Below, one piece after another: positions 21,485 through 61,402 of a DNA stretch of 64,000 nucleotides (position 1 is its first letter; the number at the start of each line of letters is the position of its first letter). The DNA lies in the NCBI GenBank assembly GCA_023101725.1, contig JALJCO010003102.1, positions 62,001 to 126,000 on the forward strand, in the 5' to 3' direction. The notes beneath the pieces are model-generated. The model saw only the letters and a program-made list of their open reading frames with translations. It had not been told where the DNA came from and searched no databases. Position numbers and translations under genes: made by a program. Source of the DNA: Atherinomorus stipes (lineage: Eukaryota; Chordata; Actinopteri; Atheriniformes; Atherinidae).

Positions 21485-22196
21485 ATGGTTGTTCAAAAGC
21501 CACACAGTGCCCATATCATATGGGTTGGGCTGCTCATTTGTTGCTTTGTAGAAATAAGCACTGGTCTAGAGTTTACAGGTGCTGAGGGGCAGTGGGCTAG
21601 GTTTCCAGTGTGGAATGCATGTTGCGAAAGTGAAATGAGCTTCAACATAAAAACAAAGAGTTCCCACGGGCTGTTAGTCTACTTCGACGATGAAGGATTT
21701 TGTGACTTTTTAGAACTTTTCATCCTGAATGGCAAACTCAACCTTCGTTTCTCAATCTTCTGCGCCGATCCTGCAACTGTCATAAGTGACACGGCGGTCA
21801 ACGACAGCCAATGGCACATGGTCATGATAAGGAGAAACTTTAAGAACACAACCCTTATGGTGGACAGTGAGATAAAGTGGGTGGAGGTGAAATCAAAAAG
21901 ACGAGACATGACTGTCTTCAGCCATTTGTTTGTTGGCGGAATACCACCAGAGCTGCAGTCCGTGGCGTTGCGCCTGACGTCGGCTGCGGTCAAGGATCAG
22001 CTGCCTTTCACTGGATGGATAACAGATATAAAGGTCAACAACACGGAGTCTGCGCTGATCAACAGTGACGGGGTTCTAATGGACCTCTGTGGTATGGCCA
22101 ACATGTGCTTAAACGGAGGAGTCTGCAGTTTAATTAACAACGAACCAACATGTGACTGCTCCCACACAGGCTTCCAAGGAAAGGACTGCAGTGAAG
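21485..22196 (+). CDS. nrxn1: neurexin-1 alpha, first coding exon (signal peptide, LNS1, EGF-A)
   Basis: Alpha-neurexin is a presynaptic single-pass adhesion receptor that binds neuroligins, LRRTMs and other partners across the synapse. This exon encodes residues 1-237 plus one nucleotide of the next codon. Residues 1-27 form a hydrophobic signal peptide (core [15 protein letters not shown]), with likely cleavage before LEFTG. Residues 28-200 are the LNS1 (laminin G-like) domain: [54 protein letters not shown] and PPEL are neurexin-1 signatures, distinguishing it from neurexins 2 and 3 as I recall them. Residues 202-235 are a six-cysteine EGF-like domain (C202, C208, C214, C223, C225, C235) ending GKDCSE. 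Predicted N-glycosylation sites are N106, N121 and N185. The exon ends in phase 1 at GAAG|GTAAGA; reading through the donor would add an unrelated tail to a stop near 22327. The ATG at 21485 is chosen because the signal peptide follows directly. The fish a/b paralogue is not resolved. Confidence 0.95.
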
Positions 22197-29756: not shown

Positions 29757-30947
29757 CCGATGTTCCCAAAAGTATTCGCTGACCCTCTGTGACTCACAAA
29801 TGAGCTTGAATGACTTCCCATTCCCAATTCATAGGGTTCAATATGACGTTGGTCCACCTTTGCAGTTAGAACAGCTTCAACTCTTCTGGGAAGGCTGTCG
29901 ACAAGGTTTAGGAGTGTACGTGTTTATGGGAATTTTTGACCATTCTTCCAGAAGCGCATTTGTGAGGTCACACTGATGTTGGATGTGAAGGCCTGGCTCT
30001 CAGTCTCAGCTCTAATTCATCCCAAAAGTTATCTGTTGGGTTGAAGTCAGGACTCTGTGCATGCCAGTCAAGTTCCTCCACACCAGACTCTGGCATCCAT
30101 GTCTTTATGGACCTGCTTTGTGCACTGGTGCACAGTCATGTTGGAAGAGGAAGGGGCCAACTCCAAACTGTTCCCACAAAGTTGGGAGCATGGAATTGTC
30201 CAAAATGTCTTGGTATGCTGAAGCATTCAGAGTTGCTTTCACTGGAACTAAGGGGCCAAGCCCAGCTCCTGAAAAACAAACCCACACCATAATCCCCCTC
30301 CATCAAACCTCACACTTGGCACAAAGTACTGTTGTCTTGGCAACCGCCAAACTTGTCCATCAGATTGCCAGATGGAGAAACACACTTCCACTGTTCTACA
30401 GTCCAGTGGTGGCGTGCTTCACACCACTGCATCCCACACTTTGCACTGCACTTGGTGATGTATGGATGCAGCTGCTCCACCATGGAAACCCATTCCATGA
30501 AGCTCACTGCGCACTGTTCTTGAGCTGATCTGATGGCCACGTGAAGTTTGGAGGTCTGTAGTGATTGACTGTGGAAAGTTGGCGACCTCTTCGCACTACG
30601 TGCTTCAGCATCCCTGACCCTGCTCCATCAGTTTCCCTGGCTTACCACTTCATGGCTGAGTTGCTGTTGTTCCCAATCACTTCCATTTTCTTATAATACA
30701 GCTGACAGTTGACTGTGGAATATTTAGGAGCGAGGAAAATTCCCACTTGGATTTGTTGCACTGGTGACATCCTGTCACAGTTCCACGCTGGAATTCACTG
30801 AGCTCCTGAGAGCGACACATTCTTTCACAAATGTTTGTAAAAACAGTCTGGTGCTTGATTTTATACACCTGTGGCCATGGACATGATTGGAACGCCTGAT
30901 TCCCATCATATGGATGGGTGAGCAAATACTGTTGGCAAGATAGTGTA
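29757..30947 (-). mobile_element. Tc1/mariner transposon fossil, near full length
   Basis: It is about 1.19 kb, with ends TCCCAAAAGTATTCGCTGACC and GGTGAGCAAATACTGTTGGC. The minus strand carries decayed transposase pieces in order: the N-terminal helix-turn-helix region (30677-30925, with ELSEFQRGTVTG and IPQSTVSCIIRKW), the middle (30310-30540), and the DDE region (30105-30290, with MVWVCFSG and [13 protein letters not shown], the Asp kept and the usual Asn after it changed to Cys). Frameshifts and stops break it. It is the same family as the deleted copy at 8830. Confidence 0.9.
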
Positions 30948-31111
30948 TGTGGTGAATTTAGGTCAGTCTAACTGTTGAAAACCAACATAGTCACATCTTC
31001 ATCATTAAAATGTGTTGATGTTTGTGTTGGTTAATATTTAGAGTCCTGGTAGTCCTTCATTGAGGACTAGGAGTATGTAAGTGTTATAAAAGTAGTATTT
31101 TTAAGACACTA

Positions 31112-41846: not shown

Positions 41847-41864
41847 AAGACAACTATAACGAAG
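41847..41864 (+). CDS. nrxn1: nrxn1 SS1 alternative exon, 18 nt
   Basis: AAGACAACTATAACGAAG sits between the acceptor TTTGTGCTTCCAG and the donor GTGGGT. Joined to the phase-1 G of the first coding exon it reads E-D-N-Y-N-E and leaves a phase-1 G. Mammalian neurexin-1 has EDNNVEG-like sequence at this point of SS1. The phase 1-1 structure allows clean skipping. The GTGGGT donor is weak, fitting regulated inclusion. The insert lies in the linker between EGF-A and LNS2 and is expected to modulate partner binding. Confidence 0.9.
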
Positions 41865-44547
41865 GTGGGTATTTTTTTAATCACCAGCATTAGCTTCAGC
41901 TAATTTTATATCTGCTGTTTATCTTGGCTAAGGCCTCTCTAACAAATGCAAGCAAATGGTTTATAATGGTTATGATATCGATGTAACTGGAGTGGTAAGT
42001 GTGACTAGTCAGATTTTCACTAGTTTTTGTTGGTTCCTTTGCCTTTTCTTTTTTGTCTTGTTTTATTCTATCTGGGGGGGTTTCCAAAATGGTCGTAATT
42101 ATCACAGCCGAAGCGTAAAAACTAATAAAAAAGATTTTAATTAAAACTCACAAATCCTAAAAAAGATTTTCTGATTATGAGTTCCTGTAATTAAGTGCTT
42201 ATTTTGATTGCCTGGCAAAAGAAATCTGCTCTTTTTCTTTTTTTATTCTGAAAGTTAGTACTAATACCAGACCAAGGCACACCCAAAAGGATATCCTTAA
42301 ATAACAATCACTTTTTAATTATTAGCTGATATGAACTGCAATTACTGAAGTGTTACAGTATAAAAAACAGCCACAATATTGTAGATTTTTAGTCATCCTC
42401 ATATCTATTCATACCCTTCTATTAATAATCGGCTAAATTTATAACAGTTATTCAAATAACAAGAAACTGAAACAAAAAAAACCTAAAAAATTAGAATTCA
42501 AATCATTATTCAATTAAATGCAATATTGATTTTTAATTTTAGTTCAAAATATTTTGTTTTTAAAAAGCAAACAAAACTGTTCCAGACAAATTAGAGCACC
42601 TTGCTCCTGAACAATGGCCAAAACATCTGTCAACAGGTGCAGAAGTTTGTTACAGTGCAGAAAACACTTGATTTGCCTTAAAGTGTTGCTCAACAAAAGC
42701 TTGGCTCAAGAGCCCCATCATGCTTGGTTACTTGTTTTATTTTTTTGTTCGTTTTTACTATTTCTGTTAAACTACAATTCAAAATCCATATAATGATTTT
42801 CATAAAATTTTTATGTTTTTTCTTTTTGTTTTTTTGTTTGTTTTTTTTCTATTTCAACTTAATTCACATTTTTTCCACCTTATTTAACGTGAGGGTGCAC
42901 TAATGATAATGAATAACCTCAAGAATATTTGGATCAATAAATGTAAAGTTTTAAATCCTCTGAATCCTACGATGTTTTTCCCAGTCATTTTCCGGAGTGC
43001 AGTTTTTGTTCAGGAGCTGACTACATGTAAGAGCAGCATTTTAGAGGCTCTCGTCTGGATGCAGAGACCAAGTGTGTAGCTGATGCGTGCTTTCCAAAAA
43101 AATACTACAAGCTTGTTTTCAGGTTCTTTACTTAGGTCTTGTAGATACCAAAAAAAAAGGTGATAAAAAATAAATCAAGAACTTTAAAGTCTCTTTATGA
43201 GTGCCTAGAAATAAGCACAGTCAAAGACTAGTGTGCTCCTTGGGCTCCACTGCAAAAGAAAGGAAGAAAGGAAACTTAAGCCTCATGCACAGCCCATTAG
43301 GCCCGAACCAATCAGAAGTCGGAGCCCAGAGCAGCCTTAATTGTTTTCAACTAAGCTTGCTAACATCCAGTACTGTCAAACTACATTTTACCAACATTAT
43401 TTAAAAAACTTTGTAATAAAGGTCAGACCCCTCAGTCACTTCTACCCAACATCCTTACAAAGTGCTAGCTCATTGTTATTCACGAGGCAGGCTCCTTTGC
43501 TAGCATTTAAGGGACATTGTGTAACTTTTGGCCACTATGGGCACGAACTTCCCACAGGCCACACAACTATCGCAAAATTGAACAGTCTCTATCTGAGTTT
43601 TGGAATTATGTTTGCAGACCACTTTTATCTGTTGATTGAAAATCATCGAGCCATAAAGCAAAAGCACTCCAGGTTACATAATCCAATGAGAGACGGATCC
43701 GCTCCTGCAAAGTTACAATGTCTGGTTTTTGAGGATGGCAATCCCTCAGAGCACCAACATGCATCAAGTGCTGTATATTGACCCCAGAAATAATCTGTTA
43801 TTACTTACATTAACAATAATATAATGTAATATTTTACTAATATTTGGGTCAAAAGTTACACAGCCTCCCTTTAAGATTCCATTTAAGCTAAATCATGTGC
43901 ACTTTGTTATTGTTATTGTCCAACATAAGACTACTAATGAACTATGTTTAAAATGAAGTGTCCTTTTTAACCATTTTATGGCTAAAACATCTTCAAACAA
44001 TTTACTATGATTAGCTTACCGACTAGCTAGTGCACAGACAGAGCAAAGGCAAACATGTTGTGTTTTCCAGCTCTCAGGTGCTCAAGGTGTTCAGTTATAT
44101 TTAAAGAATAAGGACATAACCGTCATGTCAATAAAACCGTGATGTTGATGTTGCACACATCAACAGGCTGGATGCTCGTTGTTGCTTAACTCTGAATAAA
44201 TGAATGGATGCAGTTAAACTGACATGAAGAAAGTGCACCGTGATCAGAGTACTTTACGGTGCCTGCTGGGATGACTACCTTAGAGATAAAAGGTCAACTT
44301 GAATTTAAGTTTCTGAGCAATGTGTAGTAAGTTGCTGATGGTGCATTACAACCTGCTTTGGTTGACTCAATGCTCATCTGGCTAACCCTGTCTGTGCATC
44401 CTCCTCTTCCTCTCCGCCCCACTTTCCCCTGATCCCAATGCTCCTCAAGTAACAGACATCTACTGTGAAAGAGATGCCTGTATGTCAGTGTCACAGTTTC
44501 CCATGATCCCTTGTTCTCTGCTGACTGTGCTCTTGTTTTCCTTTAAG
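41865..44547 (+). other. nrxn1: nrxn1 intron within SS1
   Basis: This 2.68-kb intron contains one TTAA-bounded MITE (43511-43870) and otherwise AT-rich unique sequence. Its acceptor is TTGTTTTCCTTTAAG. Confidence 0.85.
43511..43870. repeat. TTAA-bounded MITE in SS1 intron
   Basis: TTAA occurs at 43507-43510 and 43871-43874. Inverted ends are GGGACATTGTGTAACTTTTG and CAAAAGTTACACAGCCTCCC. The GTAACTTTT core of the end is shared with the 18101-18559 element, suggesting related families. A non-recognised open frame crosses it. Confidence 0.75.
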
Positions 44548-44577
44548 GTCTGGCACACCTGATGATGGGCGACCAAG
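44548..44577 (+). CDS. nrxn1: nrxn1 SS1 alternative exon, 30 nt
   Basis: The exon reads, with its phase-1 G, G-L-A-H-L-M-M-G-D-Q and leaves a phase-1 G. GLAHLMMGDQ is identical to the neurexin-1 SS1 peptide I know from mammals, which strongly supports both the gene and the paralogue call. The acceptor is TTTCCTTTAAG and the donor GTATGG. The 30-nt length and phase 1-1 arrangement are typical of regulated neuronal exons. Confidence 0.95.
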
Positions 44578-45294
44578 GTATGGGCTCTGTTCCTTTTTCC
44601 CGCCGTTCCTCTGTTGTTCCTCTTGCTCCCATTGTGCTGGAAATACATGTGCCTCTAACTCCCATGCAGGCTTGAAGCTTCAGATATGGCTGCTGTCAGT
44701 TCACTTATTTCAAATGACCTTGTTGATTTTCTGTCTCCAAGTGACTTTTTTTTCCATGTGACACTTCTTTCACTCTCATCTGCCTTTCGACTTCACGCTC
44801 TGCTAGATAGTCATGTCATTTCTGTCTTTATAAGCTTTTTTTTTTTCCATTTAAATTATTCATGTTTACTGTACTATTTTTCTTTTTGTGGGTGGTGGTT
44901 CAAGAAAAGGGACGCTTGCATTTACATTGTTTGGATGTAATGCATGGCGGTTGAAAATAGCTTAACGACTTTTGAAACTAATCCTCGTCTGTCCTCACTT
45001 CTGTAATGCATGCCGCGAACGTCTGCACAGGCAGTCTGTTCATTCCATCGTCATCTCATCATTTGGGAGGTACCGTGTATTGCCATTGTGCAGCAGAGCA
45101 GGGATGTGAGGCATAGTTGCTCCACTCCTCATTTTCTCTCTCATATTTGCACATATTTGTAGTTAACAAGCCTCTATCCTCTGTCATTAGTCCTCTAACT
45201 CTACCATGACACTTATTGGTGTCTCCTCTCCCTTTGTTCTCCCTTTTTGTCTGGAATCTGCTTTCTTCATGGAACATTTCACCAAATCTCATAG
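44578..45294 (+). other. nrxn1: nrxn1 intron within SS1
   Basis: A 717-nt intron, unusually short for this locus, rich in pyrimidines (many TCTT, CTCT and TGTC tracts), which could bind PTB- or SRRM4-type microexon regulators. No other exon seen. Confidence 0.8.
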
Positions 45295-45306
45295 GTAAAA
45301 GTAAAG
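45295..45306 (+). CDS. nrxn1: nrxn1 SS1 microexon, 12 nt
   Basis: GTAAAAGTAAAG lies between ...CATAG and GTATTA. With the phase-1 G it reads G-K-S-K and leaves a G, matching the GKSKG at the end of the mammalian neurexin-1 SS1 insert. It is a true microexon, phase 1-1. Oddly, its own first six bases, GTAAAA, resemble a donor, so the acceptor is followed directly by a possible donor (see findings). The acceptor pyrimidine tract is modest. Confidence 0.9.
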
Positions 45307-45742
45307 GTATTACCCTTTTTTATTTCTTTGAATTCACTGAACTGTGGCAGCGTTTGTGGCATTATATACTCATGCTGAATGATGTATATAAGGTCACTGG
45401 CATTTTTTATTTAATTTCTAAACAATTGAATAAAAGGTTTCAAAGGTAGGTGCTGCGCTCGCTTTGCATTCACATTTTTTTAACTGTTTCACCAGCTCTT
45501 CTCTGCTTGATGCATGGGAATTATAAATTAGACTGATATGGGTATATGAACACAATAATAGTTCCAGTGCACCACCAGCACCCCAGGGGTAACTACTCTT
45601 TTTGTTCAAATCATGGGCTTTGAGGTTGCGGGTGAGGCTTGATCATAGTGTTGTGGGCCTCCCATCCTGGCTGTGATCCTCACCTCTTCTCCCTGTGGGG
45701 TAAGTGGACTTCTGATCTTTCCCATTTGACTCTCCTCCTCAG

Positions 45743-45790
45743 GGCAGAGAGGGGAAGCTTGGCTTCTAAGGTCCCTACTGAGCATACAAG
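45743..45790 (+). CDS. nrxn1: candidate extra nrxn1 SS1 exon, 48 nt
   Basis: It is framed by the acceptor TGACTCTCCTCCTCAG and the donor CAAG|GTAAAA. It is open only in the neurexin phase: G then QRGEAWLLRSLLSIQ then G, phase 1-1, length divisible by three. Its other two frames contain stops. It lies 436 nt after the GKSK microexon. I know no mammalian counterpart, so it may be fish-specific or a false positive. Confidence 0.4.
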
Positions 45791-46094
45791 GTAAAACTTT
45801 GATTCTTTTATGTTGATTACTGCAGTAATGCTAAATTTAGCAGGTCTTGATTAGCTTACACTCGTGTTATGTGCATCAATTGCAATGTGTGTGAATGGTT
45901 AGTTTTACAACATTCAATCAGTTTGAATGGCTAATTAGAAAAGTGGCGATTGGATTTGCACAAGTCAAACATTTCATTTCAAATCTGAAATTAGATTTTA
46001 CTTGAATTTCTTTTATATTTACAATGTAATTAGTTTTAGTTTGGAGCAAAGTTCTTCACACAGCATGTTAAATGTTTTCTCTTATGTACTTGTG

Positions 46095-58298: not shown

Positions 58299-60526
58299 TT
58301 AAGATTTAACTGCATCTTGCCTATTTAATTTTAACAGTATATTAATGTAGGATTAACAACGGTTTCATTCAATTTTAAAGTATATTCTCAAGGATGATTA
58401 CGTTTATTTAGCTACTTGTGCATTTTGTTTTAACAAAGCTCAATAAACAATATGAAAACCAACAACAGCTCAGAAGATTTAACTAACACCACTTGTTCCA
58501 TCATACAATATTACCTCCTTCACTGCTTTGAAACTATTTTTTGAAAAGCTTGGTATTTGATTCAAGTTTTTTCACTAGGTCATATCCGCCCTCTCAGTTC
58601 AAATTTTCCTCAGGAGGAGAGGACCACACATACCCATCAACATTAAAATGAAGAAACCCATCCATCAAGCAACTTGTTGCACTCCTCCTGGTGCAGAAGA
58701 CAAAGTATTATCTTGACAATCAAAATGATTTTATTTCAATGGTAAACAATCCACATTAAATGCTCATCTGGAAAATTTATGGACATGTAGTACAGTTATT
58801 TATCCTTATTATTAATTACAATGAGATACTGTTTACATGCACAATTAATTAATCATTTGCCATTTTGCAATAATCACTAACTTGCAAGTGTTTCACATAT
58901 AAATACTCACCTGGAAATAAGGGGAATATATGGATTTTATTTTAGTTGGAAATTACTTAAACCACTTCAAATAATATTTTATTTTGTTTTATTTTATGGC
59001 CCTCTAAATAGAAAAGTGAATGCCTTTTCAGTGATGCATAGCAAGGAAATGGTTATGCTCCGTGTGGGAAATTGAATAGTCCATTTCCAATCGAGTGTGC
59101 CCTAGAAAATCCATGGGGGTCAGTGGCAATTTGTCTCAGGAGGTCTACGCTGAGAGTCATTATGCTCAAGACCAACATGTCCTGAGGGACAGAGCCATTC
59201 TTTAGAGGGAAACTTGTATTTCCTTTTTGATTCACCAAATATTTCCCTTTTCTCCCTGTGCATTCTCTTGCAAAAAGGTGAGAGGATTTTTTTTTTTTTT
59301 TTTTTGTTTTGTCCAGAAAAGCAACGCATAAATTGCAAGTTGCAGCAGCATGATAATGTGTACAATGCCACACTTCACAGCCGAAGTAAAAGAGCTACTC
59401 ATTACAGTGGGCTCTCTTTCTGAGTACCTCTTCTTTGTTGAACAAATTGCTCATGTCTCTTGTTTAATTATTCGCAAAGTGCCATATCTACTCCTCTCCA
59501 CCGTGGTTCAGATTACAAGTGTCATGAATTTTAATGGGCAAACTGTGCGACTATCAATCATTATAGTTTGCTCATGTTTCAGCCAGTGGGAAGTGACTTT
59601 TAAGCAAATGTTTTCTGACAGATAAACCTGAGATCGCTGCCACGTGGCTCAATTTTTATTCATACTGTGTTTTAATTGAAAATTATGGCATTGGTGTCCC
59701 GTTACAAAGTCTTGTCATAACTTATAACATATTTCCATAACAGAAATTGTAACACAGACAGTGAGAGGTTTACGCTTAAAAACCATCTTGCCTTATCGGT
59801 CTGTTTGTCTCTAAAGCTGATCTAGAGAAACATTTTCACCTTGAGTGAAGTAAATTAATCTGCTTCTGTGCAAGTCATGTTTCCCCCACTCTCATTTCCT
59901 GCCTTGGCTTTGTTTTTTTCACCTGTATGATCCGCAGATTTAAAACACCAGCTTTGCCCACACATCCACAGAGAGAGACGGAGCATCTGAGATAAAATGA
60001 CCGCACTTGATCCATAGCAGCTTCGTGAATGAAGTCCCTGCTGTCGGTGCCTTGTTGTTTGGCTCGTGGATGACATTCACTGCAGCATCAAAATGGCAAC
60101 ACTATGACTATATCCATGTAATTGTTGTAGAAGGTAGTTGAGAGGAACATGATGAGACCTCGTAGAGCGGGATATCAGTGATTAAAGTGCTTGAAACTGG
60201 ATCCTAAAAATACCAGGAGTGTTGCTATTTTTAACTGTGGCTTTCTAGAACAAACATCAGGTATTTCCTTTGATGGTAAATGGCAAAGAATACAAAAGAA
60301 TAACTGCATAAGAAATGAACCCATAGAGTGTCATAGAAATGTGACCATTGACTATCTTATTTCTAGATGATGTAAAAAAGCTGTTTTCAAGGAAAGTGAA
60401 AAAGAAAAGGAATGAGTGAAGAGGAATCATTTTACATTACTGCAATAAGAAACAAAAGCCCTGGGGGGGAAATATGTTTAAGGCTTTAACATTCTGGCCT
60501 TTTAATGAACTTTGTTTTTTTGTTGT

Positions 60527-60546
60527 ATTATTATTATTATTATTAT

Positions 60547-60599
<53 letters not shown>

Positions 60600-60608
60600 G
60601 TTATTATT
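60527..60608. repeat. (TTA)n trinucleotide microsatellite
   Basis: An almost uninterrupted TTA/ATT run of roughly 26 units with one CATT interruption, in the nrxn1 intron. Confidence 0.95.
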
Positions 60609-60821: not shown

Positions 60822-61048
60822 AGATCTGCAACTTCTGTGGTTAAAAGCATTTGATATTGTGGCAAAGTCAATAGTTCAAGATTTTATAAATATATAACCC
60901 ACTTTTGAGTATGTACATGTCGCTACCTAGGTCCATAGGAATTGGGACAAATGGCACTATCCAGTGGACACAGGCATAAGTACTGTAGATGGTAATCCTT
61001 TAGTTTTTTTTTTTTTTAAGTTACTGGAACAATGTTCAATGGTTATTT

Positions 61049-61055
61049 ATATATA

Positions 61056-61086
<31 letters not shown>

Positions 61087-61224
61087 TTTTTATGTGTTTT
61101 GTTATATATATATAGTGTTATATATGTGTTATATATATATATGTGATATATATATATATATATATATGTTTATATGTATGTATGTGTGTTATATATATAT
61201 ATATATATATATGTTTTATGTATG

Positions 61225-61256
<32 letters not shown>

Positions 61257-61307
61257 ATACATACATATAAACAATATATATATATATATATATATGTTTA
61301 TATGTAT

Positions 61308-61350
<43 letters not shown>

Positions 61351-61358
61351 TATATGTA

Positions 61359-61402
<44 letters not shown>
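61049..61402. repeat. compound (TA)n / TATG microsatellite, about 350 bp
   Basis: Long TA tracts alternate with a recurring GTTTATATGTATGTATGTGT unit, giving a higher-order repeat. The apparent ORFs of I, Y and C residues here are artefacts of the repeat. Confidence 0.95.

What the first reader, a model, noticed from the sequence alone, without database searches (positions are those of the whole stretch)
45743..45790. Possible unannotated 48-nt SS1 exon in fish neurexin-1
Strong pyrimidine-rich acceptor, GTAAAA donor, length divisible by three, phase 1-1, and open only in the frame that neurexin requires (QRGEAWLLRSLLSIQ). It sits 436 nt after the GKSK microexon. If real, the SS1 linker would gain a hydrophobic, leucine-rich insert that I do not know from mammals.
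Basis: partly seen in the sequence, partly recalled or inferred. Interest (0 to 1): 0.75.

Follow-up and report, generated by a model that had tools for sequence, protein, structure and literature searches.

The report
Conserved fish neurexin-1a linker exon
The 48-base stretch is a genuine coding exon that many bony fishes can splice into a flexible linker of the synapse protein neurexin-1a; genome annotation pipelines already list it in other fishes, but what it does is unknown.

Summary
The exon is real. Window 45743-45790 (+) lies in nrxn1a of a percomorph-like fish, between the EGF-A exon (21485-22196) and the first LNS2 exon, about 86 kb downstream. It adds GQRGEAWLLRSLLSIQ after the SS1 microexons EDNYNE, GLAHLMMGDQ and GKSK. 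Splice signals alone are suggestive, not decisive: of four in-frame candidates scoring as well on the + strand, three are SS1 exons, this one included, but the - strand also gives five by chance. Homology settles it. Of the 143 hits retrieved by two insert-containing queries, 142 carry the insert, in 46 acanthomorph and 6 salmonid species. One, P0117, is a spliced frame on contigs of at most 6,664 bases, so probably a transcript. Relatives are thus already annotated, mostly as predicted isoforms; the papers I searched do not describe it. I did not find it in this fish's nrxn1b SS1 interval or in 11 tetrapod neurexin-1 records spanning the linker. Skipping was not tested. A hinge-extending function is inferred.

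The parts
45743..45790 (+). 48-nt coding exon, phase 1-1, peptide (G)QRGEAWLLRSLLSIQ, SS1 linker of nrxn1a
   Evidence: identical or near-identical insert at the same junction in 52 named species
45725..45742 (+). polypyrimidine tract and CAG acceptor of the exon
45791..45796 (+). donor GTAAAA (moderate: A at +5)
45295..45306 (+). GKSK microexon (12 nt), optional in relatives' predicted isoforms
44548..44577 (+). GLAHLMMGDQ exon (30 nt)
   Evidence: lies in an 89-bp block 92% identical to nrxn1b
41847..41864 (+). EDNYNE microexon (18 nt) with tandem AG acceptors 3 nt apart
   Evidence: matches EEDNYNE/EDNYNE isoform pairs of other fishes
21485..22196 (+). exon 2: signal peptide, LNS1, EGF-A; ends in phase 1

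Best explanation
45743-45790 is a genuine protein-coding SS1 exon of the fish nrxn1a gene. Shown: its position, phase, splice signals, cross-species conservation and presence in at least one spliced, transcript-like record of another fish. When included it lengthens the linker between EGF-A and LNS2 by 16 residues, directly after GKSK. Inferred: it most likely acts as a regulated hinge extension that changes the reach and orientation of the LNS1/EGF-A arm and adds a short exposed, conserved W-x-x-RSLL-x-I segment that could be a contact or processing site. Its optional use (skipping) is inferred from its exon geometry and from its optional neighbours; it was not observed here.
For: Gene identity: exon 2 matches neurexin-1alpha LNS1/EGF-A. 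The joined own exons are 94.9-96.6% identical to the 40 best of the 120 hits, 92.8% to Stigmatopora and about 91-92% to full-length salmonid rows. Insert at the same junction in 120 of the 120 listed hits (5,283 matched) and 22 of the 23 additional hits listed (7,999 scored), counted. 52 named species, one row each: 8 of 16 positions invariant in 53 rows including this fish, mean identity 0.925. P0117: 1437-aa spliced neurexin-1a frame carrying the insert on contigs of at most 6,664 bases, while here the joined exons span over 165 kb. Neighbouring SS1 exons are optional in combination with the insert, e.g. O. niloticus with and without GKSK. PMC3084293 (passages seen) reports that a 19-residue mammalian SS1 insert at this junction is mobile and protease-susceptible, a fragment beginning DQGKS being recovered.
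Against: No RNA reads from this species could be examined. Most hits are computer-predicted isoforms, and the hit lists were ranked by similarity to queries that contained the insert. No isoform of the same species lacking the insert was seen, so it could be constitutive in some fishes. The insert is less conserved than GLAHLMMGDQ (0.990), GKSK (0.994) and LNS2 (0.994) in the same rows. The structure model was poor (mean pLDDT 42.8; insert region about 22-27). The amphipathic-helix measure was no better than shuffles. Mouse Nrxn3 SS1 splicing had no effect in one rescue assay (PMC10063607, passage).
Confidence: 0.93

Rival explanations
1. Chance pseudo-exon in an intron: splice-like signals and an open frame by luck.
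For: The - strand control gives 5 in-frame open candidates scoring as well; 42.7% of random 48-mers are open in the frame.
Against: On the + strand three of the four such candidates are SS1 exons, this one included. The exact peptide occurs at the exact junction in neurexin-1a proteins of many fishes, with 100% identity over 64 aa to Sphaeramia, Mugil, Oreochromis and Myripristis rows among others.
Confidence: 0.02
2. Real exon, but constitutively included in nrxn1a of these fishes, so a fixed linker extension and not a splice switch.
For: Every same-species isoform I saw in the lists carries it.
Against: The lists were conditioned on similarity to the insert, so skipping isoforms would rank lower. 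Neighbouring SS1 exons are optional, and the exon is 3n, phase 1-1, like a cassette.
Confidence: 0.2
3. Real exon whose peptide sequence is neutral filler: only linker length matters.
For: The linker is reported unstructured in a mammalian construct (PMC3084293, passages); other lineages show different extra SS1 residues (Pogona neurexin-2 P0153, Myotis neurexin-1 P0147).
Against: 8 of 16 positions are invariant from salmonids to percomorphs, and mean identity (0.925) exceeds that of the neighbouring EDNYNE exon (0.764) and of LNS1 (0.891) in the same rows; these values are biased upward by the selection of hits.
Confidence: 0.3

Closest known systems
Mammalian neurexin-1 SS1 inserts (EDNNVE, GLAHLMMGDQ; GKSK recalled)
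   Same: Same linker between EGF-A and LNS2; EDNNVE and GLAHLMMGDQ seen in mammal records. GKSK agrees with the DQGKS fragment of the mammalian construct and with the lizard record P0216. The fish has counterparts of all three.
   Different: The 48-nt exon is an additional one; no mammalian counterpart was seen among the records retrieved. The division of the mammalian inserts into exons is recalled.
Predicted neurexin-1a isoforms of acanthomorph and salmonid fishes (databases)
   Same: Same exon; up to 100% identical insert and flanks.
   Different: Salmonid version has 17 residues, GRREGEGWLRRSLLSIP.
Extra SS1 residues in other predicted neurexins (Pogona neurexin-2 P0153; Myotis neurexin-1 P0147; Oncorhynchus neurexin-3a P0167)
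   Same: Extra residues in the same linker.
   Different: Different sequences, single predicted records, not followed up.

Membership tests
Neurexin SS1 exon | Lies between the EGF-A exon and the first LNS2 exon, in gene orientation | tested here: met
   exon 2 21485-22196, LNS2 exon at 131595-131896 in extended coordinates
Neurexin SS1 exon | Length a multiple of three, phase 1-1, open in frame | tested here: met
Neurexin SS1 exon | Usable splice sites | tested here: met
   acceptor 8.5, donor 1.6 on simple recalled matrices, within the range of the gene's other mapped exons; consensus only, not function
Neurexin SS1 exon | Present in spliced products | tested here: met
   insert in 142 of the 143 hits retrieved, mostly predictions; P0117 on contigs of at most 6,664 bases. 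Not in RNA of this species.
Neurexin SS1 exon | Alternatively included (cassette) | tested here: inconclusive
   neighbouring SS1 exons optional; no same-species record without this exon was retrieved, because the searches favoured records that have it
Neurexin SS1 exon | Orthologue of a known mammalian SS1 exon | tested here: not met
   human-flanked chimera query listed no tetrapod among its 120 best of 7,999 scored; 11 of 11 tetrapod neurexin-1 records that span the linker go from GLAHLMMGDQ or EGF-A straight to GKEEY
Exon shared with the nrxn1b ohnolog | Homologous exon in the nrxn1b SS1 interval of this genome | tested here: not met
   19,871 bases of C3170 searched: GLAHLMIGDQ exon found, no GKSK or AKSK motif. 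Best match to the 16-aa insert 25 against 28 in the antisense control; to the 9-aa core 22 against 20, the same as chance matches in the window (22) and without a splice donor directly after it

The most novel reading that the evidence does not exclude
A euteleost-specific SS1 exon of nrxn1a, absent from nrxn1b and tetrapods, adds a sequence-constrained ligand-contact or cleavage segment (W-x-x-RSLL-x-I) to the EGF-A/LNS2 hinge. It would give fish neurexin-1a an interaction or processing mode that mammalian neurexins lack and divide labour between the two nrxn1 copies.
Probability: 0.2. Interest if true: 0.55.

Novelty: new member of a known kind. Interest (0 to 1): 0.33.

Why it matters
A 2026 review says that studies on the NRXN1 SS1 variant 'remain limited' (PMC13212319, passage seen). 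A conserved extra SS1 exon in fishes, Nile tilapia, rainbow trout and stickleback among them, offers a natural test of what this linker does. It also warns that fish and mammal neurexin-1 isoforms are not equivalent at this site. It is an addition to a known splice site, not a new kind of system.

Tried and rejected
Pseudo-exon counting: informative as a control; it cannot decide. AlphaFold2 on the Takifugu row P0105 with a 40-row alignment: poor model, so no structural claim is made. The helix over the insert (model residues 242-250) has very low confidence, and no fold search was run. Hydrophobic moment: 47% of shuffles as good (36% for the salmonid version), so the amphipathic-helix idea was dropped. 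Own-genome DNA search with 248 bases around the exon: one match, itself, so no sign of a repeat. Search of nrxn1b for the exon: none found. Pattern search for paralogous copies across the whole genome: not completed. Rfam scan of the window: 0 matches. Papers: eight searches. Listings were seen for these; passages only of PMC6856630, PMC3084293, PMC12665717, PMC10063607, PMC13212319 and PMC12871855. PMC12626420 was searched for nrxn with no occurrence in the main text held. Nothing I saw describes this exon, but the library lacks most subscription papers, including older zebrafish neurexin gene papers that I only recall. The first hit (Phoxinus P0121) looked like an otophysan with the insert but lacks it. 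Otherwise Otophysi, herrings, eels, gar and sharks were not tested for it.

Full report
What is there. The window is G000:C1615:62001-126000 of a 1.18-Gb genome. It holds the 5' part of an alpha-neurexin gene on the + strand. Exon 2 (21485-22196) encodes signal peptide, LNS1 and EGF-A and matches neurexin-1alpha structures. The rest of the gene lies downstream; I fetched 200 kb and mapped 12 further exons, with one more LNS6 match left unmapped. The joined own protein is 94.9-96.6% identical to the 40 best of the 120 hits and about 91-92% to full-length salmonid rows. The same genome has five further alpha-neurexin exon 2 copies at 42-55% identity, and three weaker matches; C3170 (55%) is taken here as nrxn1b.

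The candidate. 45743-45790 is 48 nt, phase 1-1, with acceptor CTCTCCTCCTCAG and donor AAG|GTAAAA, 436 nt after GKSK. The SS1 exons and the LNS2 exon use the same phase, so GLAHLMMGDQ-GKSK-GQRGEAWLLRSLLSIQ-GKEEYVATFKG reads through without a stop. By combined splice score four in-frame open candidates on the + strand reach this level: EDNYNE, GLAHLMMGDQ, this exon and one of 9 nt. The - strand, where no such exon is expected, gives five.

What decides it. A protein search with the region around the insert matched 5,283 of 5,300 candidates; the best 120 were listed, and 120 of 120 carry the insert at this junction. A second search with human-like flanks scored 7,999 candidates and listed 120, of which 23 were new; 22 of these carry it, the exception being Phoxinus P0121. 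A third search, for short records, gave 74 proteins. Three carry the insert: Takifugu P0105 with both junctions, Cyprinodon P0211, which ends at the insert, and Pleuronectes P0215, in which the insert is followed by non-neurexin sequence. Of the 71 without it most do not span the linker; 23 of the 74 run from EGF-A into LNS2, and of these only P0105 has the insert. One row per named species (52: 6 salmonids, 46 acanthomorphs, the grouping being recalled except for the three looked up) gave 8 of 16 invariant positions in 53 rows including this fish, and mean identity to this fish of 0.925. The same rows gave EDNYNE exon 0.764, LNS1 0.891, EGF-A 0.903, GLAHLMMGDQ 0.990, GKSK 0.994, LNS2 0.994. 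The 52 were picked from the 143 hits, leaving out P0121 (no insert), unnamed P0117 and further isoforms of the same species. These lists favour records with the insert, so the conservation is biased upward, and the lack of skipping isoforms in them means nothing. Salmonids have GRREGEGWLRRSLLSIP, one residue longer. Salmonidae and Acanthomorphata both belong to Euteleosteomorpha, so the exon is at least as old as that split, unless gained twice.

Transcript evidence. P0117 is a 1437-aa neurexin-1a frame reaching the C-terminus, with EEDNYTE, GLAHLMMGDQ and the insert but no GKSK, on contigs of at most 6,664 bases. In this fish the exons mapped span from 21485 to 187011, so such a contig must be a spliced transcript or a retrocopy; I infer a transcript. 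The source label 'lgn' I take to be assembled public reads (recalled, not from a call). Most other listed records are predicted isoforms.

Where it was not found. In the nrxn1b SS1 interval of this genome (C3170, 19,871 bases) there is a GLAHLMIGDQ exon, and an 89-bp block at 92% identity to window 44500-44588. There is no GKSK or AKSK motif. The best match to the 16-aa insert scores 25 against 28 in the antisense control. The best match to the 9-aa core scores 22 against 20, which equals chance matches in the window and is not directly followed by a donor. Eleven tetrapod neurexin-1 records that span the linker pass from GLAHLMMGDQ or EGF-A straight to GKEEY. No tetrapod appeared in the 120 best of the human-flanked query. 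Only the 7,999 candidates sharing most words were scored there, so this is good but not full evidence of absence. Other fish lineages were hardly reached.

How it probably works. Seen in passages of PMC3084293: a 19-residue SS1 insert between EGF1 and LNS2 is thought to give high mobility, and a degradation fragment begins DQGKS. The fish exon extends that linker right after GKSK. The least daring reading is a longer hinge for the LNS1/EGF-A arm. The invariant Trp and RSLL suggest that more than length is selected. Whether the segment folds or binds is unknown: the structure model was poor, and an amphipathic helix is not better than shuffles. In mouse Nrxn3, SS1 splicing had no effect in one rescue assay (PMC10063607, passage), which warns against expecting a strong phenotype.

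Verdict. A real, conserved coding exon of nrxn1a, already present in predicted annotations of many fishes and not described in the papers I could search. It is an extra member of a known splice site; its regulation and function are open.

Noticed in passing
   Followed up: yes
window 44500-44588: GLAHLMMGDQ exon plus 48 bp of upstream intron is 92% identical to the nrxn1b copy, a strongly conserved intronic flank.
   Followed up: partly
window 45791 to extended coordinate 131594: The intron after the exon is about 86 kb long.
   Followed up: no
P0153, P0147, P0167: Other predicted neurexins carry different extra SS1 residues (Pogona neurexin-2, Myotis neurexin-1, Oncorhynchus neurexin-3a); SS1 may gain lineage-specific exons repeatedly.
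   Followed up: no
P0113: A neurexin-1a record labelled both Oreochromis niloticus and Mustela putorius, which looks like a mislabelled or contaminated entry.
   Followed up: no
window 30677-30967 (-): Open frame containing NIPQSTVSCIIRKWK, which looks like a Tc1-type transposase remnant (recalled resemblance, not tested).
   Followed up: no
window 61044-61402: Long TA dinucleotide repeat, and a TAT repeat at 60526-60608.
   Followed up: no
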